From positions 62,001 through 126,000 of the forward strand of contig JAJEDE010000002.1 of NCBI GenBank assembly GCA_022821645.1: DNA of 64,000 bases. The letters are read 5' to 3'. Below the pieces are notes generated by a model. That model made no database searches. It saw only the letters and a program-made list of their open reading frames with translations, and had not been told where the DNA came from. Numbering within the stretch: position 1 is the first letter of the stretch; each line of letters starts with the position of its first letter. Below, piece by piece: positions 6,037 to 58,695 of this stretch. Source of the DNA: Chloroflexota bacterium. Lineage in GTDB: Bacteria > Chloroflexota > UBA11872. The position numbers and the translations under genes were made by a program.

Positions 6037-6474
6037 CCCTGGTCGCGCCGAGGTGCCAGACGATGGACGCTGTCACCATGTGGGATTAAGCAGCCGGCTG
6101 CGCTCGGTAAATCGACGTTGACGCCGTGGCTGAATTCACGGCCAGGTTGCCGCAATTTGCTTCGCCGAGATTTGCCGCCGGTGGGATGGACTGCGACGGC
6201 TTCTGGGCCGGCACGGGCAAGCGACGCTACTCGCGAGAGAGTGGGTTGCGTATTCTTCGGATCAGGTGATGTCTTCGAACGAAACGACGCCCAGGGGTTT
6301 GGCGATGCCTTCACCCAGATACTCCGCTTGCCAGGCAGATAATCGTGTCCTCACGATCGTCGCTGGAACCGAGTGTCGGAGTGCCGGCGGGCAGGTAGAT
6401 TCCGTGGGGCTAAGCACGGTGCGCCGGCACGTGAGGGCACCGGGCCGGGGGGCATTCAGAAGCTCGAGAGGGTT
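6037..6474. other. intergenic region before the PKS gene
   Basis: This 438-base stretch has no gene I can support. Short open frames exist on both strands. One on the minus strand ends at 6262 with a protein-like string (AEYLGEGIAKPLGVVSFEDIT read across 6262-6327), which may be a relic or chance. The PKS promoter should lie here, but I could not pick boxes reliably. The PKS ribosome binding site, GAGAGG, is at about 6465-6472. Confidence 0.4.
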
Positions 6475-31604: not shown

Positions 31605-34601
31605 GTGACCATCGATCCCACAGTCGTGCCCGGCCTTCTCTTGCTGGCGCTTGAGCTTCTGGTTCTGGCAGCCGTCGGCTACATCGTCGCCCGTCTCGCG
31701 CTGCGGCAGTCCGACGACCTGGTGGCGCTGGCGCAGGGCATGCTTATCGGCCCTGCGTTGTGGGGGCTCATCGCAAACTTCGTCCTGCATCTGGCGCCCG
31801 GGCGGGTCGGGGCGCTGGTGTCTTGGATCGCATTGTTGGCTCTCGTTGCTGGCCTGGCATGGCGCTCGTCGCGACCGCTCAGGCCCAAGATGTTGAATGC
31901 GATTGGTCTCGCCACAGTTGCAATCATCACCTTCTGGGCAATGCTGGCCGCCCGACAGTTGCTACATATCACCGACGCGGAAATCCACCTGGGGCCGGCT
32001 GCCTACATTGGTGCGGGCGGCTGGCCGCCAGTCATTTCGTTCAACCCCGGTCAGTCGGTCCTCTATCACTACGGGGCCGATTTGCTGATCGGATTGCTGG
32101 TCCCGCCCGTCGGTCCCGACCTGCCATTCACGACTGAGTTGTTTGGCGCCTACGTATGGACCGGCTTTGCGCTAGCGACAGCGATGCTGCTACGGCGAGT
32201 CGGCGGCTGGATCAGCCTCCCCGTGCTGCTTCCGCTGCTGTTCACTCCTGGCGCCTGGACCCTCGTCGGTTTCATCATCGCTCCACCCGACATCCTGCAA
32301 GTCCCCGTCCCAGTCGGTGTGCCGGCAGCCGGCCTTCGCGCCTCACTGGCCGACATGTACTGGCCCGAAGTTTCGCTCCACTGGCAGACCGTCTACGAAG
32401 CCTCGCCGCCAAACATCTGGAAACCTCCATTCGTTCTGGCCTACGGGCTTGCGTTGATTGTGCTTAGTTGCGCAGCCAGGCGACGCCCATGGTCATCGTC
32501 GGCGGCGACTACGCTGGCCGCTCTGGTCGGATTCACCGGGCTGATAAGCGAAGAGATCGCGCTACTCACGCTGGCGCTGTGGGGCGCACTCGAGGCTGGT
32601 CGGGTTGTTAGCTGGCCCAGCCGCCTGACTCATAGAGCTCGCGAGCTCATCGTCTCCGTCCTACCGTTGGCGGCATCAAGGTTCGCCTGCTCGCAGCCAC
32701 CGGGCGACGGCACCACGCCGCCGCGCGCGCTGGATGGCCACGGGGAGCCGGATGTTCGCTCCGGGCGCTGGAAGACACACTTGCACCCTTTCGCAGGACC
32801 CGCGCTGGCCGCGCTGTTGCTAGCGGTCGGCGGCGGGCCGGTTACGGCGCTGCTGAGCGGGGTTTCAAGCGGAACTTCGCTCGGCTTGATCGACGATCTT
32901 GGCAGTCGACACCCGTTCGGCACGCCCCTGAAGTCGTGGCCGGGCGGCGTTGGACTGCTGGGGATCGGAGTGGTCCCGGTCGCAGCCACCGCCTTGATGC
33001 TGGCCTGGAGCCAGCGGGTCGTTCTGGCTCTGGTAGCCGGCGCCGCCGTGTTTATGGTGGCGGCGATTGCCCTCCAGCACCCAGCAGCCCAGTTTGACGT
33101 AACCAGGATGGACGGACACGCCCGCAACTTTGCCCTGCTGGCCCTGTTGATCGCCCTTAGTTGTCGGCTGTCAATGCTACGTCCAAGCTGGCGGTACGCC
33201 GCTGGCGCACTCATCGTCTTACTCGTCACCTGGCCTACCGTCGCCGGCGCTCTACGCACGTTTGGCCTTGAGGTAAGCCACGGGATCGAACTGGCCAATG
33301 CCCAGCCTGGCCCTCGGGGACGCGATCCCGAATTCGATTCCGACCGCTACTTCTCGGGCATGGGACGCCACACGACCAGACACTCGGTGTCGGAGCCGGT
33401 CGCCCAGTACATTCGCAGGCAGACAGCGGTCAACGCTCGAATCCTCTCGCCTCATCCACACGAATTGTCGGCCTCCACGGGCCGTCCCAACGCGTCGGGA
33501 TTCGCCGGACTCAACCATCTCCGGCCTCGAACAGGTCCCGAGTTTCTAGATTCCATCCGCTACCTTGAGCCGGCGGCCATCCGTCGTGCTGGCTTTGAGT
33601 ACCTTCACGCTCCAGATGCGTGGGTTGCATCGCTTCCCAACCAAGCTCTGCAGTGGCTGCAGGATCCTCGCTTCTTTGAACCGTTGGTTCGTGGCGACGC
33701 CGACTCGCTCTACAGCATCCGGGCGTCGTTCCTTCAGCTCAGTCCCAAGCCAACACCACAGTCGTTCGAGTCCCTTCGCCGGACTGTCCCCGAGTCCGCC
33801 ACCGTAGCGCTCGTCGGCCTGACCGGTATCGACGCGGCACGCGTAGCGTCGGCGTTGGAGCACGCCAAGTTGCTCGGAGACGCTAACCGGCCCGGCCTTC
33901 ACCTCCTGGAGCGAATCCCAACAGAGCCTCTGGGCACGCGTATCCCGGACGCATTAGTCCTTCCAGAGGGTTCAGCCAGCTTCTTTAGAGCCGGTCTTCC
34001 AGACTTTCCGCCAGAATGGAGAAGCCCCAGGGCAATCTGGCAGAGCCATGGACTCTCCGCCTACGCCGCCAGCCCGACGATTGCACCCACGGTGAATCTT
34101 CGTCCCCATCCAGACGATTTTGCAGTCCGTCTGTCCGACGTCCATTCAACGGGTGGCGCGATCACTTTCACCGCCACATTCGCCGATCACGCACCCAAGC
34201 AGTGGACGGGCCAGGATTGGCTGGTCGTGCCTCTGGACAATTCCGTTTGGCAGTTGCCGACCACCGTCGAGACCGATAGGTACACGTTATCGGGCGTTAT
34301 GCAGTGGTACGCCGGGCAAATCACCCCGGGGCGGGGTGTCACCAGTCACGTCTTTCAATTCGATCCCCGCTCAGTCAGCCTTGACTTGGGGAGGTCGACG
34401 GGCGAGTTTTTCGAAATCGAATCTTCCGGCGCTCCGCCTGGTCCGGGAGTCTGGGCCCTGACCGTCCGTCTACGGCATGGCTATCGGCAGGCGGCCACCA
34501 TTCCGATACTAAAGATCGTGGTCGCCGAAAGCGGAGACGTATCGTACAGGCTCTATGAAGACGAACTCCGCGCTAGCGTCGACCCTCGTCTCGAGCACTA
34601 G
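31605..34601 (+). CDS. GT-C-like giant membrane protein, paralogue 1 (longest)
   Basis: 998 residues. About 12 hydrophobic segments fill residues 1-560, and the remainder is predicted to be extracytoplasmic. The loop after the fourth segment has HITDAEIHLGPA (Asp124, His128) and then YHYGADLLIG (Tyr154-Gly157); an acidic residue plus His in this loop is what one expects of GT-C fold transferases. The soluble part carries ILSPHPHELSASTGRPNASG and, near the C terminus, WTGQDWLVVPLD and VWALTVRLRHGYRQAATIP. Unlike its relatives it has about 35-40 extra Pro/Gly/Arg-rich residues before the GPALAALLLAVGG segment (DNA about 32640-32780), which look like inserted sequence. It starts with GTG and no good ribosome site. 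It is the first gene of a three-gene plus-strand run. Function is inferred; a glycan polymerase or ligase is also possible. Confidence 0.8.
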   Translation: MTIDPTVVPGLLLLALELLVLAAVGYIVARLALRQSDDLVALAQGMLIGPALWGLIANFVLHLAPGRVGALVSWIALLALVAGLAWRSSRPLRPKMLNAIGLATVAIITFWAMLAARQLLHITDAEIHLGPAAYIGAGGWPPVISFNPGQSVLYHYGADLLIGLLVPPVGPDLPFTTELFGAYVWTGFALATAMLLRRVGGWISLPVLLPLLFTPGAWTLVGFIIAPPDILQVPVPVGVPAAGLRASLADMYWPEVSLHWQTVYEASPPNIWKPPFVLAYGLALIVLSCAARRRPWSSSAATTLAALVGFTGLISEEIALLTLALWGALEAGRVVSWPSRLTHRARELIVSVLPLAASRFACSQPPGDGTTPPRALDGHGEPDVRSGRWKTHLHPFAGPALAALLLAVGGGPVTALLSGVSSGTSLGLIDDLGSRHPFGTPLKSWPGGVGLLGIGVVPVAATALMLAWSQRVVLALVAGAAVFMVAAIALQHPAAQFDVTRMDGHARNFALLALLIALSCRLSMLRPSWRYAAGALIVLLVTWPTVAGALRTFGLEVSHGIELANAQPGPRGRDPEFDSDRYFSGMGRHTTRHSVSEPVAQYIRRQTAVNARILSPHPHELSASTGRPNASGFAGLNHLRPRTGPEFLDSIRYLEPAAIRRAGFEYLHAPDAWVASLPNQALQWLQDPRFFEPLVRGDADSLYSIRASFLQLSPKPTPQSFESLRRTVPESATVALVGLTGIDAARVASALEHAKLLGDANRPGLHLLERIPTEPLGTRIPDALVLPEGSASFFRAGLPDFPPEWRSPRAIWQSHGLSAYAASPTIAPTVNLRPHPDDFAVRLSDVHSTGGAITFTATFADHAPKQWTGQDWLVVPLDNSVWQLPTTVETDRYTLSGVMQWYAGQITPGRGVTSHVFQFDPRSVSLDLGRSTGEFFEIESSGAPPGPGVWALTVRLRHGYRQAATIPILKIVVAESGDVSYRLYEDELRASVDPRLEH

Positions 34602-34728
34602 CAGCAGACGGGCGGGTGCCAACGACCATTGTTGGAGAACTAACGCACTCAGCGACGCCAGAACTACGACGCGTCGGCGCACCGATCCGATGCGAGCGTC
34701 TGCCCTCAACGGTCGGAGAGACCGCTGA

Positions 34729-37614
34729 ATGACGGTTGACACAGTCGTGGTTCCGGGACTGCTTCTCCTGATGGCCGGGTTGTTCTTGCTGGCAGCGGTC
34801 GGCTTCGTCGTAGCGCGAGTCGCATTGGGCCAGACCGACGATCGTATGGCCCTGGCCCAGGGGCTGGTCATCGGGCCGGCGCTGTGGGGGCTGCTGGCCA
34901 ACTTCATCCTGTACTTCATTCCGGGCCTGGCCGGCGCCCTTGCAACCTGGGTCGTCACCCTGGCCTTAGCCGCCGCCCTGGCCCGCCGCGCCGCGAGCAG
35001 GTTCCGAGTGTCGGCCCGCACGCTGGCCGGCTTCAGTCTGGTCAGTCTCGCCGTTTTCTGGGTTGCGCTGGCCTGCCGGCAATTGCTGAGCATTCCCGAC
35101 GAGGACATTCACCTGGCGATTTCGGCAACGATTCGAGCCGGTCAGTTCCCACCGGTGCTTTCGTGGATTCCGGACCAACGCCTTCCGTACCACTACGGCG
35201 CGGACCTGCTGATCGCGTTGTTGACCCCGCCCGTGGGCCCGGACTTCGCATTCACGACCGAAGTCCTCGGCGCCTTCATCTGGACAGGGTTCGTCTTGGC
35301 GGTCGCGACTGCCGTGATGCGACATGCGGGCGTCAGCGCTCTGATTCTCGTGCCGCTCCTCGTAACGGCCGGCGCGTGGTCATTGATCTGGTACGCCGAC
35401 GCCCCGCACATCCTGCAGGCGGCGGCGCCCGCCGGAATCCCCGGCGCGGGAATCCGCGCCTCCCTGGGCGAAATCTACTGGCCATCCGTTTCGCTGCCCT
35501 GGACGTGGCCCGGGGAGGCATCGCCGCCGAACATCTGGAAGCCTCCGTTTGTCCACAGCTATGCGCTGGGCTTTATCGTGCTCGAACGGGCGGCCGCGGC
35601 GGAAGGCACGACCGGGCGACGCAGGTGGCCGCTGGCGTTCCTGGTCGGATTCATGGGCCTGATGGCCGAAGAGGTCGCTCTTCTCGTCCTGGCCCTTTGG
35701 GTTGGCCTGGAGATCTTGCGGTTTATGCACGCCCGGTCAATGGACGCCGCGAACAGGCGCATCGTGCTGCGGGCGGCGGCTGGACCCTTACTGGCAGTGC
35801 TCCTGCTCGTTCTGGGGGGTGGAGTCATCACGAGTATGTTGACCGGCGCGGAAGGAAAAGAGCTGTCACTGGGATGGCACGCAGATGCGGGGAGCCGTCG
35901 GCCGCTGGGCGCCTTTGACGCCATGCCCGGCGGCGTCGGCATCCTCGGCCTTGGCGTGCTTCCCGTCGCTTTGGCCGCCGTGCTTCTCGCCAGGCGGAAT
36001 CGCCTCGTCCTGGCGCTGGCGGCTGCAAGCGGCGGATTCCTCCTGACCGCGCTGGTGCTGCAATACGAGCCGGCAGGTGAAGTCACCCGTTTGGACGGAC
36101 ACGCACGAAACTTCGCGCTGCTGGCGCTGTTGGTGGCGCTGAGCGTCAGCCTTCCGCGCCTAAGGCCTCGCTGGCGTTACGCCGCCCTGGCAAGCATTGC
36201 GGCGCTCGTGATCTGGCCGACGATTGTCACTCCAACACGCAGCATGGCCCTGGCGCTCAGTCGCGGGGTGCACCTCGCCAACGCGCAGCAGAGCGAGCGC
36301 GAATTCGACGAGTGGGTCATGGGACGGGCAGTCATTAAGTCCCTCCGTTCCGAGCGAATCGCTGCCTACATCCGCAGCCAGACCGCGATTGACGCCCGGG
36401 TTTTCTCTCCTTACCCGCACAGCATGACCGTCTCCACCGGCCGCCCAAACGCGTCCGGTTTCCCCACGCTTATCCACCTGTTCGCAATAACGGGCGCCGA
36501 ATACGAGGACGCGCTGCGTTCCCTGGAACCTTCGGCCGTCCAGCGTCTCGGCTTCACTTATCTCCACGCCTCGGACGAGTGGGTCGCGCGCCTGCCCGCC
36601 CGCGCGCGGGCGTGGCTACAGCGACCCGATCTATTCGAGCCATTGATCCGTGACGGCCCTGACGCGCTGTTCCGGATTCAACCGGGATTCCTGCAATTGA
36701 CTCCCGCGCCAGACGCCCAGTCGTACGAGGCGTTGCGGCGCCGCGTGCCCGATGGCGCCACGGTGCACGTGCCAACCCCCACCAGCCCGCTGACAGCAAT
36801 CCGCGTTGCCTCCGTGCTGCCGCACGCCCGGATACTGGGGGCGCTGGATCCGCACGTCCATTACTCGCTGACCAACATCCCAACCGAGCCCCTGGCCGGC
36901 CGCCTGCCCGACATCGTGGTCGTTGAGCGCGACCTATCGTTTGACATCAGCACGCAGGAATTCACCCCGATCTGGTGGAACCACGCGGCTGCGGCCTACT
37001 CCACAGGGCCTGAACGCGCGGCCGCCGTCGATCCTCCGCCAGATTCAGAGAGCTACGTCACCGTCCGGCTCTCGAACGTCAGCCGGCAAGACGCCCGGAT
37101 CAGCTTTACCGCCCACTTCGTGAACCATGCTCCCGGCCAGTGGACCGGCCAGGACTGGCTGCTGGTCCGCGTGGAGGAAACCGACTGGCCGTTGCCCAGC
37201 GAGTTCGAGTCCGACGGATACACCCTGGTGGGCGTCCGCTGGTTCGGGGGGCAGCTATCCCCAGACGTCGTCGACACCTCGATCAGGTACCGATTCAATG
37301 CCGGAACAGGCCAGCTGGAGTCGGACGATTCCGCCGGCGGCTTCGTTGCGCTTCCGACGTCAGGCAGCCCACTGGAGCCGGCCGAGTACGTCCTTGTAAC
37401 CAGACTCCAGCGCGAGTACCTGCAAGCGGCAATCATCCCGGTGCTGAAAGTCCGAGTCACGGAGACCGGGTCGGCGGCATTCGCGGGCTACGCAGGCGAA
37501 CGCCGCGTGTCAGTGAACGCATGCCCGGAACGTCTGCGGATCGCCGCCCTCGGGGCCACGCTGTGCCGCAACCTGGAACTCCAAGCCTCGCCGCTCGCTT
37601 CCAGGCAGAATTGA
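34729..37614 (+). CDS. GT-C-like giant membrane protein, paralogue 2
   Basis: 961 residues with the family plan: about 12 membrane segments, then a soluble part of about 430 residues. The loop signature is SIPDEDIHLAIS, here with an acidic triplet (Asp-Glu-Asp) before the His, followed by YHYGADLLIALL. Later segments are EASPPNIWKPPF, ATGR equivalent STGRPNASG, and WTGQDWLLVRVEETDW in the C-terminal beta domain. The C terminus extends beyond the family end with about 30 residues containing two cysteines (NACPERLRI...TLCRNLEL), a feature shared with paralogue 6. GGAGAG about nine bases before the ATG at 34729 is a fair ribosome site. The gap from the previous gene is 127 bases. Confidence 0.8.
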   Translation: MTVDTVVVPGLLLLMAGLFLLAAVGFVVARVALGQTDDRMALAQGLVIGPALWGLLANFILYFIPGLAGALATWVVTLALAAALARRAASRFRVSARTLAGFSLVSLAVFWVALACRQLLSIPDEDIHLAISATIRAGQFPPVLSWIPDQRLPYHYGADLLIALLTPPVGPDFAFTTEVLGAFIWTGFVLAVATAVMRHAGVSALILVPLLVTAGAWSLIWYADAPHILQAAAPAGIPGAGIRASLGEIYWPSVSLPWTWPGEASPPNIWKPPFVHSYALGFIVLERAAAAEGTTGRRRWPLAFLVGFMGLMAEEVALLVLALWVGLEILRFMHARSMDAANRRIVLRAAAGPLLAVLLLVLGGGVITSMLTGAEGKELSLGWHADAGSRRPLGAFDAMPGGVGILGLGVLPVALAAVLLARRNRLVLALAAASGGFLLTALVLQYEPAGEVTRLDGHARNFALLALLVALSVSLPRLRPRWRYAALASIAALVIWPTIVTPTRSMALALSRGVHLANAQQSEREFDEWVMGRAVIKSLRSERIAAYIRSQTAIDARVFSPYPHSMTVSTGRPNASGFPTLIHLFAITGAEYEDALRSLEPSAVQRLGFTYLHASDEWVARLPARARAWLQRPDLFEPLIRDGPDALFRIQPGFLQLTPAPDAQSYEALRRRVPDGATVHVPTPTSPLTAIRVASVLPHARILGALDPHVHYSLTNIPTEPLAGRLPDIVVVERDLSFDISTQEFTPIWWNHAAAAYSTGPERAAAVDPPPDSESYVTVRLSNVSRQDARISFTAHFVNHAPGQWTGQDWLLVRVEETDWPLPSEFESDGYTLVGVRWFGGQLSPDVVDTSIRYRFNAGTGQLESDDSAGGFVALPTSGSPLEPAEYVLVTRLQREYLQAAIIPVLKVRVTETGSAAFAGYAGERRVSVNACPERLRIAALGATLCRNLELQASPLASRQN

Positions 37615-37663
37615 TCCTGAGCGCCTAGTCTCGAGGCGCGAAAAAGAGGGTAGCCGGCCACGC

Positions 37664-40483
37664 ATGACGATTGACCCCACCGTTATTCCCGGCCTCCTGC
37701 TGCTCGCCGCCGAACTGTTCGTACTTGCCGCCGTCGGATACATGGTCGCGCGCGTTGCGCTGCGGCAGACGGATGATCGACTGGCGCTGGCGCAGGGGTT
37801 GGTGATTGGGCCGGCGCTGTGGGGGCTGACTGTCAACTTTCTCCTGCATGTGCTGCCGGGGCTGTCCGGCACGCTGGCGGGCTGGATCGTCGTTCTGGCC
37901 GTCGGCGCTGGTCTGACGTGGCGATGTCGCGACGACCTACGGGTTCCGCCTCGAACGATCGCTGGCTTCGGCCTCGCCGGCACCGCCATCTTCTGGGTGG
38001 CGCTGGCCAGCCGCCAACTGCTGATTATCCCGGACGAGCTTCTCCATACCACGCTTCCCGCCACAATCCGCGCCGGCGGCTGGCCGCCGACGCTGTCCTG
38101 GAATCCCGATCTGGACCTGGCGTATCACCATGGCATCGACTTGCTAATCGGGTTGCTGACGCCACCGATGGGACCGGATCTGGCGTTCACGACCGAGTTG
38201 CTTGGCGCTTTTGTCTGGACCAGCTTGATCACGCAGGCAGGGGCACTGCTCCTGCGGCATGGTTCGTGGGCCAGCACGCTGGCGTTGACCCCGCTGCTGC
38301 TTTCGGCCGGCGCGTGGACACTGGTGTTTGGCGAACAACCGACGATGGTTCAGGTTCCAGTGCCCACCGGCATTCCATCGGCCGGACTGCGCGCAGCGCT
38401 GACCGAGACTTACTGGCCGGCTGTGGAACTGCCATGGTCATCGGAACAACACGCGACTCCGCCAAACATCTGGAAACCTCAATTCTCATTTGCGTACCCG
38501 CTGGCGTTCGTGACGTTGGAGCGGGTCGCCGCCAAGAACGACCATACTTGGCCGGCCGGTTTGACGCTGGCGGGCCTGGTGGGGTTCCTGGGCATAGTGG
38601 ACGAAACGGTTGCTCCGGTGGCGTTGGCACTGTGGGTCGTGGTCGAAGCCAGCCGGCTGCTCCAGACTCGACCGACTGGTTCAACTCCCCTGCGAACTGT
38701 CCTGCGCACAGCGGCGGGCCCCACGCTGGCTGCACTGCTGCTCGCCGGGGGCGGCGGGGTACTTACGGGAATTCTAACCGGGGGCTCCGGATCCGGCGAC
38801 CTGGCACTCGCATGGCCCCTAGACCCTCGAGACCGAGGCGCAGTGAGTTCCGTAACACCTATTGCGGGAGGACTGGGTCTACTTAGGCTCGGATCCTTGG
38901 TCGTGGTCGGTGCCGCCCTAGTCTTGGCAGCTCGCAGCCATCTTGTTCTTGTCTTGGTGGCAGGTGCTGGCGCATTCCTGCTCGCCGCCTTGACGCTGCG
39001 GTACGACATCGCGCCGCATGACATTGGCAGGTTCGACGGGCATGCCCGTAACTTTGCGCTGCTGGCGCTCATGCTGGCGCTGAGCATCCGTCTCGGGACC
39101 CTACAGTCACGGTGGCGCTACGCTGCCGCCGTGCTCGTCGCGGCACTCATCGCTTGGCCTACTGTCGCCACGCCGGCACGCAAACTCAGCCTCGCGATTG
39201 GGCATGGCGTGCAGATTGCCAACGCGCAGCCAGGACTCGGCGAGTTCGACGTTTGGTACTGGTGGATGGGGAGATACGCGCTGGAACGCTTCCCTTCCGA
39301 TCGGATTGCCGCTTGGCTCCGTGATCACACGGACCCAAATGCGCGAGTTCTCTCCCCCATGCCCCACGCGATGACTATCGCCACCGGCCGACCGAACGCC
39401 TCGGGTTTCGCACAGTTCTTGCACACGCGACCTCATATAGGACCCTCGTATCTGGACGCGGTCCGCCACTTAGAACCCGCAGCGCTCCAACGGCTCGGTT
39501 TCAGATACATCCACGCGCCGGACACGTGGGTTGCCAATCTCCCTGAGCGTGCCGCTCACTGGCTGGCTGATCCGAAGTTCTTCGAACCACTCATCCGCGA
39601 TGGCGCCCAATCGCTCCTCCGGGTGCGGCCGGCGTTCTTGCAGCTCGACATCCCGCCAGCCCCCGGCACCTACGAAGCCCTGCGACTGGCTGCTCCAACA
39701 GGATCGACGGTGTATCTCTCGCCAGCAACGGACTCGCTCAATACATTCCGCGCTGCTGCAGCGCTCCGCTATGCTCGGCTTTTCGGTTCGCCAGACCGAG
39801 CAGCCTTGCATCTGCAGGAAGACTTGAGCTTTGCGCCACTCGGTGGCCATGGTGCAGACCTCGTGGTAGCGCCAGTGCGGATGGCTCCGTCCGTGTTTGA
39901 GCATGACGTACGACGCCCAATCCTGTGGAACGACGAGATTGCCGTTTATTCCCCCAACGGAGCGGTGGAACCCGTCATGGACCCACCGCCACAGCCATTC
40001 AGCGTCCGCTTGTCGGACCCGCAAGTAATGAGGGGACGCCTCGCCTTCTCCGCTGAACTCACCGATCAGACCGGTGTCGGCTGGACAGGCCAGGACTGGC
40101 TGGTCGTGCCGGCGGACGCCTCGCCGTGGGCATTTCCGCTCATCCGACCAACCGACACCGCGGCCCAATGGTTTGCGGGACAGGCCGTACCGCGGCCCGG
40201 GACGATCACGCATCGGTACGAGTTCGACCCGCAGAAGGCCACTCTGGCGCTGCACGGGGGAGGGCGTAGCCTGACCGAGCTTCCATCGTCCGGCGCTGGG
40301 CTGGATCCTGGCGTTTGGGTATTGGGTGTGCGCCTTCGTAACGACTACCAGTTGGTCGCCTTCATTCCAACAGTGAAGATCGTGGTTTCAGACTCACGCG
40401 AGGTGTCGTATCACGTCTACGAGGGCGAGCTTGGAGTGCGACCGACCCCGGGTCCGGTAGGTTCGTCGAAGGGGCGGTTCTGA
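37664..40483 (+). CDS. GT-C-like giant membrane protein, paralogue 3
   Basis: 939 residues, same architecture. The loop reads IIPDELLHTTLP, so the Asp and His are kept while the intervening residues differ; next comes YHHGIDLLIGLL, where the usual YHYG is YHHG. The soluble part has VLSPMPHAMTIATGRPNASG and FFEPLIRDG, and the end has WTGQDWLVVPADASPW and VWVLGVRLRNDYQLVAFIP. It starts at an ATG 49 bases after paralogue 2, with GAGGG about 12 bases upstream, so it is probably co-transcribed. It is convergent with the epimerase gene, 123 bases away. No obvious terminator with a T-tract lies in that gap. Confidence 0.8.
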   Translation: MTIDPTVIPGLLLLAAELFVLAAVGYMVARVALRQTDDRLALAQGLVIGPALWGLTVNFLLHVLPGLSGTLAGWIVVLAVGAGLTWRCRDDLRVPPRTIAGFGLAGTAIFWVALASRQLLIIPDELLHTTLPATIRAGGWPPTLSWNPDLDLAYHHGIDLLIGLLTPPMGPDLAFTTELLGAFVWTSLITQAGALLLRHGSWASTLALTPLLLSAGAWTLVFGEQPTMVQVPVPTGIPSAGLRAALTETYWPAVELPWSSEQHATPPNIWKPQFSFAYPLAFVTLERVAAKNDHTWPAGLTLAGLVGFLGIVDETVAPVALALWVVVEASRLLQTRPTGSTPLRTVLRTAAGPTLAALLLAGGGGVLTGILTGGSGSGDLALAWPLDPRDRGAVSSVTPIAGGLGLLRLGSLVVVGAALVLAARSHLVLVLVAGAGAFLLAALTLRYDIAPHDIGRFDGHARNFALLALMLALSIRLGTLQSRWRYAAAVLVAALIAWPTVATPARKLSLAIGHGVQIANAQPGLGEFDVWYWWMGRYALERFPSDRIAAWLRDHTDPNARVLSPMPHAMTIATGRPNASGFAQFLHTRPHIGPSYLDAVRHLEPAALQRLGFRYIHAPDTWVANLPERAAHWLADPKFFEPLIRDGAQSLLRVRPAFLQLDIPPAPGTYEALRLAAPTGSTVYLSPATDSLNTFRAAAALRYARLFGSPDRAALHLQEDLSFAPLGGHGADLVVAPVRMAPSVFEHDVRRPILWNDEIAVYSPNGAVEPVMDPPPQPFSVRLSDPQVMRGRLAFSAELTDQTGVGWTGQDWLVVPADASPWAFPLIRPTDTAAQWFAGQAVPRPGTITHRYEFDPQKATLALHGGGRSLTELPSSGAGLDPGVWVLGVRLRNDYQLVAFIPTVKIVVSDSREVSYHVYEGELGVRPTPGPVGSSKGRF

Positions 40484-50011: not shown

Positions 50012-52813
50012 TCACGGAGCCAGAACCGAGTCCAGAACTCCCGAATAGACCTCATAGGTCACCTCGCCATCCGTGGCAATGACTATTTTCATTACCGGGA
50101 TAAAGGCAACCTCCCACCAATCGCCGCGCAGGCGCACAGCTAATGTCCAGATGCCGGGCCCCAGCCCTTCTCCAGAAGATTGCGCAGCTGCAAATGCACC
50201 GTCCTCGCCACGGACCAGCAGCTTCGGCGCAAGAGGATCAAACTCAAACCTGTGAGTCGTGGATTCCTGTCCCGGTATGACCTGACCAGCAAACCACTGT
50301 CTGCCCGCGTGACGCCGTCCATCATCTTCGAGCTCGCGGGGAAACGCCTAGGGGGACGTGTCCGCGGCAGCAACCAGCCAGTCCTGACCGCTCCACCGAC
50401 TGGGAACCCGATCGGTGAACAAAGCCGTAAAGGCAACGCTCCCGTCCATGATTTGAACGTCAGATAGTTGAAGGCTAAATAGCGGAGCGGCCGGCGAGGT
50501 AATGGGGATATAGTCGCCACGGGGTGTGTAGACGGCCAGTTTGTCATTTCTCCAGACGGGCTGGCGTGCGTCCGGGATTAGTGCCGACGGTGCCACCAGG
50601 CTGGAAACCACTACGAAGTCAGGCGTGGAAGAGCCCAGTGGCTCTGTTGGCATCTCTGTTAGAAGATACAGGTTGGCGTGATGCAATTGGCCTAAGAGTC
50701 GAGCATGCGCCAGGACAGAAGCAACGCGAACGCTGTCGATCGGATCTATTGCTGGCGCGAGATAGACTTTGGCAGACGCAGGCACCGTTCGGCGCAAGGC
50801 CTCAAATGACCCCGGCGAAGGCTGGACCTCAAGTTCAAGAAATGCTGGCTGGATTCGGAGGAGGCTGCTAGTTCCCAAGAGAAGCAGCGGGTCAAAAAGC
50901 TGAGGATCCGCTAGCCACTCTTGTGCCCGTTCGGGTAGATCAGCAATCCAGTCAGACGGAGCATGCACGTGCGTAAAGCCGAGACGACGAATTGCCGAGG
51001 GTTCCAAATAGCGAGTGGAGTCCAAGTATTCTGCCCCGCCCTTTGGGTGCAGATGCAAATGCCCGGGAAAGCCAGAAGCGTTGCTTCGACCTGTGGCAAT
51101 TGTAATACGAGACGGTTCCGGCGAGAGAATGCGCGCGTTAGCGTCCATGTTTCTATCGATATAGGTAACCATCTGGTTAGGTATCGGTCTTCCTACTACG
51201 TAACGACGCATGAGATTCGAGACAAACGGCTGCCCTGGCTGCGCGTTCTCTAGCTTGGGGCCGTGGGCCATCCCCAAGAGCATGCTGTGAGTGGGTGCCG
51301 CGACAGTTGGCAATGTGACAATTGAAAGCAACCCAGCTCCTAGGACGTGGCGCCAGAGCGGACGCAGCAACACGAGACGGCCACTGATGGCGATCAGCAA
51401 TGACAGCAGAGCAAACGTTCGCGCGTGCCCATCCAGTCGGGTCACATCGCGCGCAGGCTCGTATTGCAGCATCAGCGAAGCAAGCAGAAACGCAATGCTT
51501 GCGGCCGACAGGGCCATTACAAGTTGGTCGCGTCGAGCCAGTAAACCGGCAAAAATAGCGACCACCAATGGGCCGATTCCCAGCACGCCAATCCCGCCCT
51601 GCAATGCGTCGAGTGTTGCCAGCGGTCGTCGGCTCTCGGCGTCAGGAGTCCACGACACCTCAAAATCACCCACACTTCCAAGTGAGCCTGTCAAAATGCC
51701 CGTAACCACCCCGCCGCCCGCCACCAGCAGCAACGTGGCGATCGCCGGGCCTGCGGCTGACCGAGAAACCAAATGCCAGTCGGGACTCCGCCCGAATAGG
51801 AACTTTCGAACGCTCATAACTTCCAGGACTGCCCAAAGTGTCAGGGCCATTAGGGCAACCGTTTCCTCCATCAAGCCTACGAATCCGACGAGGGCTGAAA
51901 GCGTGAGAACTGCCCACCACGAGCCGAGCCTGCGGCTACCGGCTGAGGTCAGCACGACGAGAAACAGTGCATAGGTGAGGAGAAACTGGGGCTTCCAGAT
52001 GTTTGGTGGCGACGCCTCAACCGGACGGGTCCAAGGCAGCTCAGCCGCCTCAACCGCTGGCCAGTAAATCTCCGCCAACGCGGCACGCAGGCCAGCCGCT
52101 GGCAAACCGGTAGGGACGGGAATCCGCAGAACGTCTGGTGCAGTCACGTAGCCAATTAGCGTCCAAGCACCTGATGAGAGCAGAAGTGGGGTCAATACGA
52201 GCACACTTACCCACCCACCTCGGCGTAGCATGGTCGCTACGATTAAGGCGAGCGCAGTCCACGCATACGCCCCAAATATCTCTGTCACTAGCGCCAGATC
52301 CGGCCCGGATGGCGGAGCCAGCAGCCCGATCAGCAAGTCCGTGCCATAGTGATAGTAGAGAGGCAGCCATGGATTCCACGGCAGGGTCGGTGGCCAACTT
52401 CCGGCCCGGATAGCGGCGGCTACTTCCAGGTGAATTTCAGGATCGGGGATCGTAAGCAGTTGCCTAGCGCCTAATGAAACCCAGAACAGCACTAAGGCTA
52501 TGGCGGTAAACCCAACAATCCCGGGCAACGAACACCTGAGCCTTAGCCGCCTCCGCCAGGCAAGTCCAAGTCCGATTGCAAGCACGACGGCCCAAGCTAC
52601 GGCCGCACCTCCTCTACCGGGAATCAAGTACATCACAAAGTTCACAGTCAATCCCCAGAGGGCTGGACCAATCACTAGACCTTGAGCCATCGCCATCCAA
52701 ATGTCGGCCTGCCGTAAGAGGGTTCGTGAGACGACCAAGCCCAGCCCGGAGAGCGCAAAGAACTCTAGAGCCAGGAGCGCTAGCCCGGGCAAGACCTCAA
52801 GGTCAACCGTCAC
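50012..52813 (-). pseudogene. GT-C-like giant membrane protein, paralogue 5, interrupted by an in-frame TAG
   Basis: The frame runs from GTG at 52813 for 821 codons to TAG at 50350-50348, and then continues in the same frame for 112 more codons to TGA at 50014-50012. The continuation is clearly family sequence: AFPRELEDDG, QWFAGQVIPGQ, WTLAVRLRGDWWEVAFIPV. The stop falls exactly where all six relatives have Trp (SPWAFP or similar), so one G-to-A change turned TGG into TAG. Everything else is intact: IPDPEIHLEVA, YHYGTDLLIGLL, EASPPNIWKPQF, WSGQDWLV. No in-frame start lies soon after the TAG, so the product would lose most of the C-terminal beta domain. TAG is an ordinary stop for other genes here, so recoding is unlikely. 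Confidence 0.85.
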
Positions 52814-52849
52814 TACGAAACCTCACCTACAGATCAAGGTGCTTCAACG

Positions 52850-55762
52850 CTACCTACCCAATGCAGCCTGTGTCGCGCTAGATCTCTCCGCCAGTCGTCG
52901 GCACGAAGCGGCATGCTGCAATTGCTGAGGACAAGGCTCGACAGTTGCTGTGAGTTGCCCCTCATAGGCCTTGTACGATACTGCGCCCGATTCGAAGACC
53001 CTGACGGTAAGCAGAGGGATGACCGCCGCCTGCAGATTGTCGTACCGTAGCCGCACGGCCAGAGCCCAGACGCCTGGGCCGAGACTGGATCCAGAGGACT
53101 CGAAAGCGGTAGCACCACCGTTTGGCCCTTGAGGTGCAAGGCGAATCCTGAGAGGATCAAACTCGTAAACGAATCTTCCTGACTGTTGGGTCGGCAGAAT
53201 CTGTCCGGCGTACCACTGCATTCCCTCGTAGATCGTGTATCTATCTGATCCCACTGGAATTGGCAACGCCCAGGGTGTGTCATCTACTCGAAGTACCAGC
53301 CAGTCCTGACCAGTCCACTGCTGCGACGCGCGGTTTGTAAACGTCGCGGTAAAGTTGACGGTATTCCCGGTCGAGTGGACTTCCGACACGAGAACCGAGA
53401 ATTGTGCCCCGCGCACCGGCTTGGTGGAGTCGATGTTCGTCACAGCACTTGGCCTCTTTGCGTAGGCCTGGAGTCCGTGACCCTGCCAGATTCTGACCGG
53501 TTCCCTCCACTTCGACGGGAAACCACGAATGCTGGCATACAAAAATGCAACGGCACCTTGAGGAACTAGCACGATGTCAGGGAATCGCTCGTCCAGCGGC
53601 TCGGATGCGATCTCCGTTAGAAGATGGATCCCGGTCGGGTCAATCTCGCCGTATAGCTGCGCATGCGCCAAAGTGGACGCTAGTCGAACGTTGTCAAGAC
53701 GATGGAGAGCCTCTGTTAAATACACGGTCGCAGACGACGGGACTGCGCGTCGCAAAGCCTCGAAAGACTGGTCCGAGGGATCTGGATCTAGTCGCAGGAA
53801 CGCTGGTTGCAGTCGGTAGAGCACATCGGTTCCATCGCGCACGAGTGGCTCAAATAGGCTGGCATCGCTCAGCCAGCGCTGGGCCCGAGTCGGGAGAGTG
53901 CCAACCCACGCGTCCGTAGCATGTACGTAAGCGATACCGAGCCGCCGAAGTGCGGTCGGCTCAAGGTAACGGATCGCGTCGGCGTACTCGGGGCCAGTCT
54001 TTGGGTGTAGGTGACGCAGGCCTGAGAATCCCGTGGCGTTTGGACGCCCCGTGGCGGAGGTGACGGCTTTCGGATGAGGTGAGAGAATACGGGCGTCGAC
54101 CAGAGTCTGCGCGCGAATATAGTCAGCCACAATCTCCGAACCGAACCGACTGACCGCGTAACGCCCCTCGAGCGAAGAATCAGCCTCTCCCATCTCAGGC
54201 TGTGTATTCGCCAAGTGGACTCCACGGCCTATAGCTTGAGCTAGGCTGAGAACTGGTCCGGCTGCCGTCGGCCAAGTCACAATGATAAAGACTACGGTGG
54301 CAGCAGCGTAGCGCTGCCGATAGCGCAATCTTGCTAAGCGTTCGCTCAGCGCCACTATGAGCGCCAAGAGGGCGAGGTTTCGTGCGTGCCCATCAAATCG
54401 CGTGACGTCCTGAGGGGCCGGTGCATACTGTAGGGCAAGTGCGGACACGAAGAAGACGCCGCTTCCGACTGTAAGTAGCAGCACGAGTCGCGTGCGTATG
54501 CTGAGCAGCGCAGCGGCAAATGCGACCAGAACTGGGCCGACCCCTAGCACCCAGATCCCGCCGGGCCGCGCGTCCAACGTCCCGAACGGTGACCGGCTGC
54601 CCGGGGTGTCGAGCCAACCCAATGAAAGACCGGACTGCGATGTACCGAACAGGATGTCGGTGATGCCTCCGCCACTCGCGACCAGCAGGAGCACAGCCAG
54701 CGTTGGACCCATAGCCGCAAGCCTGACGGTGTCATTGCCGAAGGATCTTGCGCGCCCAATCCGAAGAACCAGCCAAGCGTCCTGAAGAACCCAGAGGGCA
54801 AGCGTCACAAGTGCAATCGGTTCGTCCAAGAGGCCCACAAACGCAATAACGGCGGCCAAAGTCAGAGAGCCCGCCCAAGAGCGCACATCGGCCGTGGCGA
54901 CGCGCTCGAGCACGACAGTGGAAAGGGCGTACGACATGACGAATAGGGGCTTCCATATGTTCGGCGGCGTTGCATCGAATCGCGTCGGCCATGGAAGCGA
55001 AATCTCGGGCCAGTACAGGCCGGCTAGAGATTCGCGAACCCCGGCGGCTGGAATCCCTGCCGGAACCGGAATCTGCAAAACGGCAGGAGGCGTGGTGGCC
55101 ACTAACGTCCAGGCCCCAGCTGTCAGAAGCAGGGGCACCAACACCATGGCTATGAGCCACGAGCCTCGCTGCAACACCAGGGTTGCGACCACCAGAAGCA
55201 GGCCAATCCATGCGTAAGCGCTAAGCACTTCAGTGGTAAAGGCCAGATCCGGACCGAACGGTGGCGCCAACAACCCAATCAGCATGTCGACACCGAAGTG
55301 GTAGGCGAAAGGCTGCCCCGGATTCCAGGGGAGGGTTGGCGGATATCCTCCCGCCCGTATAAACGATGCCAGCCCCAAATGAATGTCAGCGTCGGGGATC
55401 GAAAGCGTCTGGCGTATGGCCAGGACAATCGAGAAGAGTGCAAGCCAGGCGGCAGCGAAAGCGGCAGCTGTGCGCACCGGCAGTTGCAGCATTTCTCGCT
55501 CGCGCCAAGCTAGTCTCGCGGCAACTGCCAGAACGAGGATCCAGCCCGCCAGAGCCCCGGCGCGGCCGGGAATCGCGTGAAGGATAAAGCTAGCAGCCAA
55601 GCCCCAAAGCGCAGGTCCGATCACCAGTCCCTGTGCCAGAGCCATGCGGTCGTCGGTCTGCCGTAGCGCCACCCGTACCACGACATAACCCACCGCCGCC
55701 AACGTCAACAGTTCAAGCGCCAGCAGTAACAGACCGGGAATGACTGCCGGGTCAACCGTCAC
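52850..55762 (-). CDS. GT-C-like giant membrane protein, paralogue 6
   Basis: 970 residues. The loop motif is SIPDADIHLGLA, followed by AYHFGVDMLIGLL, so YHYG is YHFG here. Other family landmarks are DATPPNIWKPLF, RFDGHARNLALLALIVAL, ARILSPHPKAVTSATGRPNATG and WTGQDWLVLRVDDTPW, with VWALAVRLRYDNLQAAVIPLL near the end. The C terminus is extended by about 30 residues that contain two cysteines (EPCPQQLQHAASCRRLAERS), resembling the tail of paralogue 2 and pointing to these two being closer relatives, or to exchange between the arms. It starts with GTG at 55762. The next copy follows 36 bases after its stop. Confidence 0.8.
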   Translation of the reverse strand: MTVDPAVIPGLLLLALELLTLAAVGYVVVRVALRQTDDRMALAQGLVIGPALWGLAASFILHAIPGRAGALAGWILVLAVAARLAWREREMLQLPVRTAAAFAAAWLALFSIVLAIRQTLSIPDADIHLGLASFIRAGGYPPTLPWNPGQPFAYHFGVDMLIGLLAPPFGPDLAFTTEVLSAYAWIGLLLVVATLVLQRGSWLIAMVLVPLLLTAGAWTLVATTPPAVLQIPVPAGIPAAGVRESLAGLYWPEISLPWPTRFDATPPNIWKPLFVMSYALSTVVLERVATADVRSWAGSLTLAAVIAFVGLLDEPIALVTLALWVLQDAWLVLRIGRARSFGNDTVRLAAMGPTLAVLLLVASGGGITDILFGTSQSGLSLGWLDTPGSRSPFGTLDARPGGIWVLGVGPVLVAFAAALLSIRTRLVLLLTVGSGVFFVSALALQYAPAPQDVTRFDGHARNLALLALIVALSERLARLRYRQRYAAATVVFIIVTWPTAAGPVLSLAQAIGRGVHLANTQPEMGEADSSLEGRYAVSRFGSEIVADYIRAQTLVDARILSPHPKAVTSATGRPNATGFSGLRHLHPKTGPEYADAIRYLEPTALRRLGIAYVHATDAWVGTLPTRAQRWLSDASLFEPLVRDGTDVLYRLQPAFLRLDPDPSDQSFEALRRAVPSSATVYLTEALHRLDNVRLASTLAHAQLYGEIDPTGIHLLTEIASEPLDERFPDIVLVPQGAVAFLYASIRGFPSKWREPVRIWQGHGLQAYAKRPSAVTNIDSTKPVRGAQFSVLVSEVHSTGNTVNFTATFTNRASQQWTGQDWLVLRVDDTPWALPIPVGSDRYTIYEGMQWYAGQILPTQQSGRFVYEFDPLRIRLAPQGPNGGATAFESSGSSLGPGVWALAVRLRYDNLQAAVIPLLTVRVFESGAVSYKAYEGQLTATVEPCPQQLQHAASCRRLAERSSATQAALGR

Positions 55763-55860: not shown

Positions 55861-58695
55861 TCACGGAATTAACGCCGCGCCAAGCGTTCCTTCATAGACC
55901 GCATATGCAACCTCTCCTGCGTTTGAAACCGTAAGGCTCATCAGCGGGATGTACGCGAGTTCCCACCAATCGCCTCGCAGGCGCACGGCCAGCGTCCAGT
56001 CGCCTGGCTCAAGGGCCGTACCAGAGGAAGGCGCCGCCGCGAATTCACCGTCGCCCTCCGCCACCAGAAGACTCACCGCACGCGGGTCAAACTCAAACCG
56101 GCGCTCCGTCGTGCCCCTGCCGGGAACGACCTGACCGCCGAACCATTGCGACCCGGCATGACGACGTTCGTCCGCCTCAAATTCGCGCGGAATCGCCCAG
56201 GGCGAGGCGTCGGTTGACGTCACCAGCCAGTCCTGGCCCTTCCATTGGTCGGGCTCCCGGTCCAGGAACTTGGCGGTGAAGGCGATTCGACCATCGGCCG
56301 TCTGGACGTCGGACACCTCAACGCTGAACGGACGCGGCGGCGGCGGCATGATCGGGTTGGCGGCTTTGCCTAGCGGATATATCGCAATCTCGTCGTTCCA
56401 CCAGATTGGCTGACGCCGGTCCAGGGGAAACGCGGATGGGGCCAGGCGCGCCGACGTAACAATGAGGTCAGGCGTCCGATCTCCCAGTGGTTCGGTGGGA
56501 AAATGGGGTCGGCTGTGCCAGGTTGGCGTCGGTCGCGCACGACCGAGAAGCTGGGTGTGCGAAAGCACCACTGCGGCACGAATTGAATTCACCGGTTCGA
56601 GCGCCGGCGAGAGGTACACCGTGGCGTCGGGCGACACCGCTTGCCGCAGACCTTCGAACGACTCAGGCGGCGGTGTCGTCGCCATATCCAGGAACACGGG
56701 CTGGACTCGATACAGGGTGTCGACACCGTCGCGAATCAGCGGTTCGAAGAAGCTCGGGTCTTCCAGCCAGCGCTGCCCGCGCTCCGGCAAATCGGCGATC
56801 CACGCGTCAGGCGCATGGACGTAGTCAACGCCGAGACGTCGGACCGCCAGCGGTTCAAGAAAGCGGATCGCGTCCAGGTACTCCGGGCCATGCACTGGGA
56901 CGAATTGCACGAACTCGGCGTAGGCCGAGGCGTTAGGACGGCCAGTCACAATCGACATTTCGATGGGAGAAGGCGACAGGATGCGGGCGTCGACCGACGT
57001 GTGCTCGCGTATGTATTCGGCAACTACCTCCGACATCGGCTTACGCATCACGTAGCGGCCAATCAGGTCCGAATGAATGGCTGACGGATCGCGTCGGGCA
57101 TTAGCGAACTCGGGCCCGCGCCGAAGAGCAAGGCCAATGTTCTGTGCCGGCGCCGCGACCGTTGGCCAGGTGACAAGGGCAACCAGCACCGCGCTCGTGG
57201 CATAGCGCCAGCGTGGCGAGAGCGCGGCCATTCGCGCACCCAAGGCCACCAGCAACGCCAGCAGCGCGAAGTTCCGTGCATGACCGTCAAGACGAACCAG
57301 ATCCAACGAGAACTCGTATCGCAGCGACAGCGCCGCCAGCAGCATCAGAAGACTGGTCGCCGCCAGAGCCAGCACCAGTCGCTGTCGCCAGGCCAGCAGC
57401 AGGGCTCCGACGGTTACGGGCACGGTGCCAAGCGCCAGCACGCCTACGCCGCCCGACAAGCGGGTGAATTCGCCCAACGGCCGCCGGCTGCCGGCGTCGG
57501 CGATCCATCCAAGTGACAACCCCGTGTGTGACGAACTGGTCAGAGCCCCGGTAATCGCGCCTCCGCCAACGGCAAGGAGCAACGCCGCGAGCACGGGTCC
57601 CGAACACGCGCGAAGCACCGGCTCCCACCGCACCGGACTGCGGCTGCTGTCTCCGCGCAGGCGCCGAACGAGCGGCACGAGATGTGAGCCGCGATGCAGC
57701 TCATAGAGTTCCAGAAGTCCCCACAGACCAAGTACGACCGGGGCCACCGTTTCGTCAACCAGCCCTAGAAAACCAATGGCCAGCGCCAGGGCAACATGCC
57801 CCAGCCACCCTCGCCTGCCGCAAACCGTCGCGCGCTCCAGCGCTACAAACGCCAGGGCGTAGGCAAACACGAAATGGGGCTTCCAAATGTTCGCCGGCGA
57901 CGCTTCAACCGCGGTCTTCCAGGGATAGTCCACCGTGGGCCAGTAAACGCCCCACAACGAAGCGCGTACGCCGGCCTCCGGGATTCCCGCCGGAATCGGG
58001 ACCTGCAAAATGCCCGGCGGCGCTGTGTAGTGCAGTTGCGTCCACAGTCCAAACGACAGCAGTAGCGGGCAAATCACCAGCGCGGTGATCCGCGAGCCAA
58101 ACCTCACGACCGTTGCGACCACGAGCAGCGCCAGGCTGGTCCACGCGTACGCGTCGATGACCTCGGTCGAAAACGCGGGGTCTGGGCCCACCGGCGGCGC
58201 CAGCAGGGCCATCAGCAAGTCCGCCCCGTAGTGGTACGGCGCGGGCAACCCGGGGTGCCAGGGAAACGCCGGCGGGTATCCCCCGGCGCGGATGGAAGCG
58301 GCCAAGCCCAGGTGCAGATACGCGTCAACGATGTACATCAACTGACGGCTGGCCAGCACAAACCAGAAGAGCACCAGCCCCGCCGCCACAAACCCGACAA
58401 CGGTGCGAGGCTTGAGTCGCAGGCTGGCCGGCGCCCGCCAGGCAAGTCCGGCGGCCAGCGCCACCGTGACGATCCAGGCAGCCAGTGCACCTGCCAGACC
58501 GGGAAACAGGTGCAGGACGAAATTGACGGTCAGCCCCCAGAGCGCCGGCCCGATGACCATCCCTTGAGCCAGCGCCAGCAGGTCGTTGGACTGCCGCAGC
58601 GCCACCCGTGCGACCACGACACCGATAGCGGCCAACACCAGCAGTTCCAGGACCAACAGGATCAGACCCGGGAGGACGGTCGGATCAACCGTCAT
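55861..58695 (-). CDS. GT-C-like giant membrane protein, paralogue 7
   Basis: 944 residues, first of the four minus-strand copies. The loop reads YIVDAYLHLGLA (Asp124, His128), followed by YHYGADLLMALL. The segment between membrane regions near residues 330-355 carries a basic insert (RGSHLVPLVRRLRGDSSRSPVRW) not seen in most copies. Further landmarks are EASPANIWKPHF, RLDGHARNFALLALLVAL, ARILSPSPIEMSIVTGRPNASA and WKGQDWLVTSTDASPW; it ends WTLAVRLRGDWWELAYIPLMSL. It starts with ATG at 58695, shortly after the Nudix gene on the same strand, and is 98 bases upstream of paralogue 6. An operon from Nudix through DUF3604 is plausible. Confidence 0.8.
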   Translation of the reverse strand: MTVDPTVLPGLILLVLELLVLAAIGVVVARVALRQSNDLLALAQGMVIGPALWGLTVNFVLHLFPGLAGALAAWIVTVALAAGLAWRAPASLRLKPRTVVGFVAAGLVLFWFVLASRQLMYIVDAYLHLGLAASIRAGGYPPAFPWHPGLPAPYHYGADLLMALLAPPVGPDPAFSTEVIDAYAWTSLALLVVATVVRFGSRITALVICPLLLSFGLWTQLHYTAPPGILQVPIPAGIPEAGVRASLWGVYWPTVDYPWKTAVEASPANIWKPHFVFAYALAFVALERATVCGRRGWLGHVALALAIGFLGLVDETVAPVVLGLWGLLELYELHRGSHLVPLVRRLRGDSSRSPVRWEPVLRACSGPVLAALLLAVGGGAITGALTSSSHTGLSLGWIADAGSRRPLGEFTRLSGGVGVLALGTVPVTVGALLLAWRQRLVLALAATSLLMLLAALSLRYEFSLDLVRLDGHARNFALLALLVALGARMAALSPRWRYATSAVLVALVTWPTVAAPAQNIGLALRRGPEFANARRDPSAIHSDLIGRYVMRKPMSEVVAEYIREHTSVDARILSPSPIEMSIVTGRPNASAYAEFVQFVPVHGPEYLDAIRFLEPLAVRRLGVDYVHAPDAWIADLPERGQRWLEDPSFFEPLIRDGVDTLYRVQPVFLDMATTPPPESFEGLRQAVSPDATVYLSPALEPVNSIRAAVVLSHTQLLGRARPTPTWHSRPHFPTEPLGDRTPDLIVTSARLAPSAFPLDRRQPIWWNDEIAIYPLGKAANPIMPPPPRPFSVEVSDVQTADGRIAFTAKFLDREPDQWKGQDWLVTSTDASPWAIPREFEADERRHAGSQWFGGQVVPGRGTTERRFEFDPRAVSLLVAEGDGEFAAAPSSGTALEPGDWTLAVRLRGDWWELAYIPLMSLTVSNAGEVAYAVYEGTLGAALIP

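What the first reader, a model, noticed from the sequence alone, without database searches (positions are those of the whole stretch)
50348..50350. Single TGG-to-TAG change breaks paralogue 5 at an invariant Trp
After the TAG, 112 codons of intact, clearly homologous sequence continue in the same frame to a TGA at 50012. The stop sits on the Trp conserved in all six relatives (SPW, SQW, TPW, VW, DW). No other damage is visible, so the mutation is very young or readthrough keeps the gene useful. It would remove the C-terminal half of the beta domain.
Basis: seen in the sequence. Interest (0 to 1): 0.6.

Follow-up and report, generated by a model that had tools for sequence, protein, structure and literature searches.

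The report
Stop-broken gene in membrane glycosyltransferase array
One copy in a row of duplicated, probably sugar-transferring membrane-protein genes of a Chloroflexota bacterium carries a single recent stop mutation; other copies in this genome and its relatives are broken in many different ways, so this is ordinary gene wear and tear, not a special decoding trick.

Summary
A TAG at 50350-50348 (minus strand) interrupts paralogue 5 (52813-50012) at codon 822; the frame then stays open for 111 codons to a TGA. All six intact paralogues in the window have Trp there, and the counterparts in two congeneric genomes have TGG. Best explanation: a recent nonsense pseudogene in a birth-and-death array of GT-C-like membrane proteins. 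In 22 genomes, 7 of 170 near-full-length copies carry one in-frame stop (5 TAG, 1 TAA, 1 TGA), at differing sites; others are frameshifted or reduced to remnants. A second TAG-broken copy in this genome is intact in one relative and frameshifted in another. Readthrough gets no support: RF1 is present, no CUA-anticodon tRNA was found, no pyrrolysyl-tRNA synthetase passes its cut-off, and no structure follows the stop. Selection on the tail looks normal, so the stop is young. An assembly error cannot be excluded without reads.

The parts
50012..52813 (-). Paralogue 5: GT-C-like membrane protein gene, 933 codons to the original TGA, interrupted by one TAG
50348..50350 (-). Premature TAG at codon 822; Trp in all intact paralogues of the window and TGG in the counterparts of G007 and G009
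50351..52813 (-). Sense codons 1-821, still translatable: predicted polytopic membrane region, alpha/beta region and the first three strands of the C-terminal beta domain
50012..50347 (-). Intact in-frame tail after the stop (111 codons plus TGA), about 91% nt identical to G007, dN/dS 0.21
50396..52813 (-). Divergent N-terminal segment of the mosaic (codons 1-806): 63% nt identity to the G007 counterpart, third positions 44%, GC3 about 0.605
50372..50395 (-). Recombination boundary region: the conserved W[STK]GQDWL[VL] motif, where identity to G007 jumps
52850..55762 (-). Paralogue 4: intact neighbour, also without a close counterpart and GC3-poor (0.637); probably the other half of the replaced segment
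47095..49908 (-). Paralogue 6: intact downstream neighbour, 90% aa identical to its G007 counterpart
55861..58695 (-). Paralogue 3: intact upstream neighbour, 90% aa identical to its G007 counterpart
31605..40483 (+). Three further intact paralogues (31605-34601, 34729-37614, 37664-40483)

Best explanation
Paralogue 5 is a recently inactivated (nonsense) copy in a birth-and-death array of large membrane proteins that look like GT-C glycosyltransferases. Inferred events: homologous recombination at the conserved W[STK]GQDWL[VL] motif joined a divergent N-terminal segment, probably part of a replacement of about 5.4 kb that also brought paralogue 4, to the resident C-terminal tail and downstream gene; and one base change in a Trp codon 45 bases past the junction made a TAG. 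The order of the two events is not known. Translation would end at residue 821, keeping the membrane part but losing most of the C-terminal beta domain, so the copy is probably inactive or impaired; with about a dozen relatives in the genome its loss is probably tolerated. Shown: the stop, intact counterparts elsewhere, the mosaic, the family-wide spectrum of decay, and no detectable relaxation yet in the tail. Inferred: glycosyltransferase function, loss of function, redundancy.
For: Intact syntenic counterparts with TGG in G007 and G009. In 22 genomes, 7 of 170 near-full-length copies (my hand count of the rows) carry one in-frame stop (5 TAG, 1 TAA, 1 TGA), beside many frameshifted copies and shredded remnants; the five other stops that I located all lie in different alignment columns. 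Copy L005 of this genome is broken by TAG at codon 225; its counterpart is intact in G007 and frameshifted in G004. A 93-residue remnant (L013) beside it also has a TAG. The TAG share fits codon usage: single mutations would give about 51% TAG. The genome is not error-ridden: 0 stops in about 57 full-length ABC ATPase domains. Tail dN/dS 0.21 against 0.08-0.25 for neighbours. Mosaic: third-position identity 0.44 before and 0.85 after the boundary, Fisher p = 1e-18. GT-C resemblance: AftA E 2.5e-5, DPY19, ArnT.
Against: The tail is still under apparent purifying selection, which fits a young stop but equally fits continued translation. No reads or second strain are available, so the base itself is unverified. 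The truncated 821-residue product could keep some function. The GT-C assignment rests on a model with modest TM-scores (0.34 by query), and no Pfam or NCBIfam family matches.
Confidence: 0.82

Rival explanations
1. Sequencing or assembly (consensus) error in the draft genome: the population gene is intact.
For: The assembly is 28 contigs with 7% estimated contamination; no reads available; a single base is the whole defect.
Against: About 57 full-length ABC ATPase domains in the same genome have no internal stop, so base errors are rare. The other two broken copies lie in a zone that also holds an ABC fragment with a TAG, as expected of real decay.
Confidence: 0.1
2. UAG readthrough or suppression: the ribosome inserts an amino acid at UAG and makes the full-length protein at a reduced level.
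For: All three broken copies in this genome have TAG; the tail is conserved; a survey of bacterial in-frame stops argues that many persist under purifying selection (PMC7918605).
Against: RF1 present; no PylS over cut-off; no CUA anticodon among the tRNA genes and no match to a strict CUA-tRNA pattern; TAG serves as the normal terminator of paralogue 6; stop positions and types vary across the family; no RNA structure after the stop (z = +1.15); the TAG excess is not significant against about 51% expected.
Confidence: 0.04
3. The stop makes a shorter functional protein (domain loss rather than gene death): an 821-residue membrane protein without most of the beta domain.
For: 821 codons and the predicted membrane region are intact.
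Against: The stop falls after the third strand of the beta domain, so the product would carry an incomplete domain; stops elsewhere in the family fall at unrelated positions.
Confidence: 0.04

Closest known systems
Nonsense pseudogenes in bacterial birth-and-death multigene families
   Same: Tandem paralogues, intact counterparts in relatives, scattered stops and frameshifts, and shredded remnants.
   Different: The gene is also a recombinant, with the junction 45 bases before the stop.
In-frame stop codons in bacterial genes under purifying selection (Belinky et al. 2021, PMC7918605)
   Same: Single in-frame TAG with low dN/dS around it. That paper also notes that such stops tend to persist only for a short time, on the scale of population polymorphism.
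   Different: The stop is not shared by any sampled counterpart, so the conservation that paper uses against pseudogene status is missing.
GT-C membrane glycosyltransferases (AftA, DPY19, ArnT)
   Same: Foldseek matches of the whole model: AftA 8if8 E 2.5e-5, DPY19 7zlh E 1.4e-4, ArnT 5f15 E 0.03; multi-helix membrane part plus soluble C-terminal region.
   Different: Low TM-scores, 9-16% identity, no Pfam or NCBIfam match; substrate unknown.

Membership tests
Nonsense pseudogene | Premature stop in a frame whose homologues are intact | tested here: met
Nonsense pseudogene | Lineage-specific: counterparts in relatives lack the stop | tested here: met
   G007 and G009 have TGG
Nonsense pseudogene | Relaxed selection after the stop | tested here: inconclusive
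   Tail dN/dS 0.21 is in the range of neighbours; a young stop would not show relaxation yet
Nonsense pseudogene | No functional full-length protein | not testable with these tools
   Needs proteomics
UAG recoding or suppression (pyrrolysine or suppressor tRNA) | tRNA with CUA anticodon | tested here: not met
   None among 52 tRNA matches in a 95%-complete genome; strict pattern 0
UAG recoding or suppression (pyrrolysine or suppressor tRNA) | PylS or other dedicated synthetase | tested here: not met
   No PylS hit over cut-off; other synthetases not searched
UAG recoding or suppression (pyrrolysine or suppressor tRNA) | Absence or weakening of RF1 | tested here: not met
   RF1 present over cut-off
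Programmed readthrough | Stop conserved at the same site in relatives | tested here: not met
GT-C glycosyltransferase | GT-C fold | tested here: inconclusive
   Foldseek E 2.5e-5 to AftA but TM-score 0.34 by query
GT-C glycosyltransferase | Match to a curated glycosyltransferase family | tested here: not met
   No Pfam or NCBIfam match; over the family only weak Pfam matches, best E 0.021 to a domain of unknown function

The most novel reading that the evidence does not exclude
The TAG-bearing copies are a reserve of silenced cassettes in an array that keeps recombining at the W[STK]GQDWL[VL] motif: a stop in one copy is removed or moved by recombination with a neighbour, so copies switch off and on over short evolutionary time, as silent cassettes do in antigen-variation systems. 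The evidence shows recombination at the motif and a young stop side by side, but no switching.
Probability: 0.06. Interest if true: 0.55.

Novelty: new member of a known kind. Interest (0 to 1): 0.15.

Why it matters
By itself a single stop in one of about a dozen paralogues matters little. It is useful as a roughly dated example of turnover in a large, unnamed family of GT-C-like membrane proteins that reaches about 20 matches per genome in this Chloroflexota group, and it shows that these arrays exchange segments at a conserved motif. It also warns against reading a lone in-frame TAG with a conserved tail as recoding.

Tried and rejected
5-methylcytosine hotspot: the stop and the L013 stop both lie in CCTAGG and could have come from CCWGG sites, which suggested deamination or a methylation-linked base-calling error; no C5 cytosine methylase (PF00145) was found in the genome and stops of other copies lie in other contexts, so this was dropped. 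Pyrrolysine and amber suppressor: not supported. TAG excess: all three broken copies here are TAG, but about 51% of single-base stops would be TAG by codon usage and the family survey has all three stop types. Downstream stem-loop, promoter or terminator at the stop: none. A PDB search by sequence profile gave only weak antibody matches. No donor of the divergent segment was found among the fetched loci.

Full report
Check of the observation. The minus strand carries an open frame from GTG at 52813 to a TAG at 50350-50348; the same frame then runs 111 sense codons to a TGA at 50014-50012. Alignment with the six intact paralogues of the window puts the TAG on a column that is Trp in all six. 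The nearest counterparts, G007 (63% aa identity) and G009 (62%), are intact and have TGG at the site. In a 30-member alignment the column is Trp in 28 and Arg or Leu in two, so the residue is strongly preferred rather than invariant.

What the gene is. The window is part of contig C27 of a 3.55 Mb, 28-contig genome. Named records of close relatives are Chloroflexi/Chloroflexota MAGs. The genome holds about a dozen paralogues, on C27 and C24. None of three window members matches Pfam or NCBIfam, and over 30 members only weak Pfam matches appear. An AlphaFold2 model of the intact G007 counterpart (mean pLDDT 78.6) shows a multi-helix region, by its hydrophobic sequence a membrane part, over the first ~515 residues, an alpha/beta region and a C-terminal beta domain at about 778-928. 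Foldseek finds GT-C glycosyltransferases: AftA (E 2.5e-5), DPY19 and more weakly ArnT. TM-scores are modest, so this is a likely function, not a shown one. An epimerase and an asparagine synthase lie nearby, which fits glycan chemistry but proves nothing.

The gene is a mosaic. Neighbouring paralogues 3 and 6 are 90% aa identical to their G007 counterparts, while paralogue 5 is 63%. Along paralogue 5 the identity jumps: for codons 1-806, nucleotide identity to G007 is 0.63 and third-position identity 0.44; for the last 127 codons, 0.91 and 0.85 (Fisher p = 1e-18). The jump lies at about 50395, at the start of the family's W[STK]GQDWL[VL] motif. The stop is 45 bases further on, inside the conserved block. 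Paralogue 4 also lacks a close counterpart, and both it and the N-terminal part of paralogue 5 are GC3-poor (0.64 and 0.61 against 0.70-0.79 in the other copies; the tail itself is also low, 0.60, as is that of G007, 0.62). G007 has three genes (B, C, D) where this genome has two, and G007 and G009 are collinear. The simplest reading is that a segment of about 5.4 kb was replaced in this lineage; the donor is not among the fetched loci. Because the G007 and G009 copies also vary in identity along their length, further exchanges are likely.

Age of the stop. Against G007 the post-stop tail has 12 nonsynonymous and 17 synonymous differences, dN/dS 0.21; intact neighbours give 0.12-0.25 over the whole gene and 0.08-0.13 over their last 112 codons. 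Polarised with G009, 5 amino-acid changes in the block (the stop included) fall on this lineage and 6 on G007. If selection had ceased at the stop, the stop would date from at most about the last 15-35% of the branch. The test cannot separate a young stop from a tail that is still translated.

Readthrough. RF1 is present. The PylS search returned only sub-threshold matches. Of 52 tRNA matches above threshold, ARAGORN assigned no CUA anticodon; one was left unassigned with the four-letter anticodon tgca. TAG is the ordinary terminator of paralogue 6. No structure follows the stop. A published survey argues that many bacterial in-frame stops persist under purifying selection but also that they tend to be short-lived (PMC7918605); the criterion it relies on, a stop shared by orthologues, is not met here.

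Decay is common in the family. In 22 genomes I counted by hand 170 copies covering at least about 700 profile positions; 7 have exactly one in-frame stop (5 TAG, 1 TAA, 1 TGA), and others are split by frameshifts or survive as fragments with several stops. Besides paralogue 5, I located five of these stops: at about codons 205 (G020), 225 (L005), 548 (G012:C152) and 899 (G010), and in G012:C146 one column away from that of G012:C152 (alignment of the last two by eye). All are different columns. In this genome L005 (C27:42202-44991) has a TAG at codon 225; its counterpart is intact in G007 at 84% identity and split by a frameshift in G004. Next to it lie a 93-residue remnant with its own TAG and an ABC ATPase fragment with a TAG. 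About 57 full-length ABC ATPase domains in the same genome have no stop, so this is not general base error. The share of TAG fits what single-base changes in this codon usage would give, about 51%.

Conclusion. The finding is real, probably a recent nonsense pseudogene in a birth-and-death array, and ordinary in kind. The added result is that the broken copy is recombinant, with its junction at a conserved motif close to the stop. An error in the assembly remains possible until reads are seen.

Noticed in passing
window 50396-55762: A segment of about 5.4 kb (paralogue 4 and codons 1-806 of paralogue 5) has no close counterpart in sampled relatives and is GC3-poor; its right edge lies at the W[STK]GQDWL[VL] motif.
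   Followed up: partly
G000:C27:41735-46416 (outside the window; L046): A decayed zone: a TAG-broken paralogue (L005), a short remnant with a TAG (L013) and an ABC ATPase fragment with a TAG.
   Followed up: partly
window 31605-58695 and relatives: A large family of GT-C-like membrane proteins, up to about 20 matches per genome, without a Pfam or NCBIfam model.
   Followed up: partly
L051:4498 and L052:3640 (G012): Two copies of one genome carry TAG in adjacent alignment columns (around codon 550); probably chance.
   Followed up: no
window 6373-16830: A 3485-residue polyketide synthase (KS, AT, DH, MT, KR, ACP domains by Pfam).
   Followed up: no
G005:C35:22692-26169: A shredded paralogue with several stops and frameshifts, an advanced stage of the same decay.
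   Followed up: no
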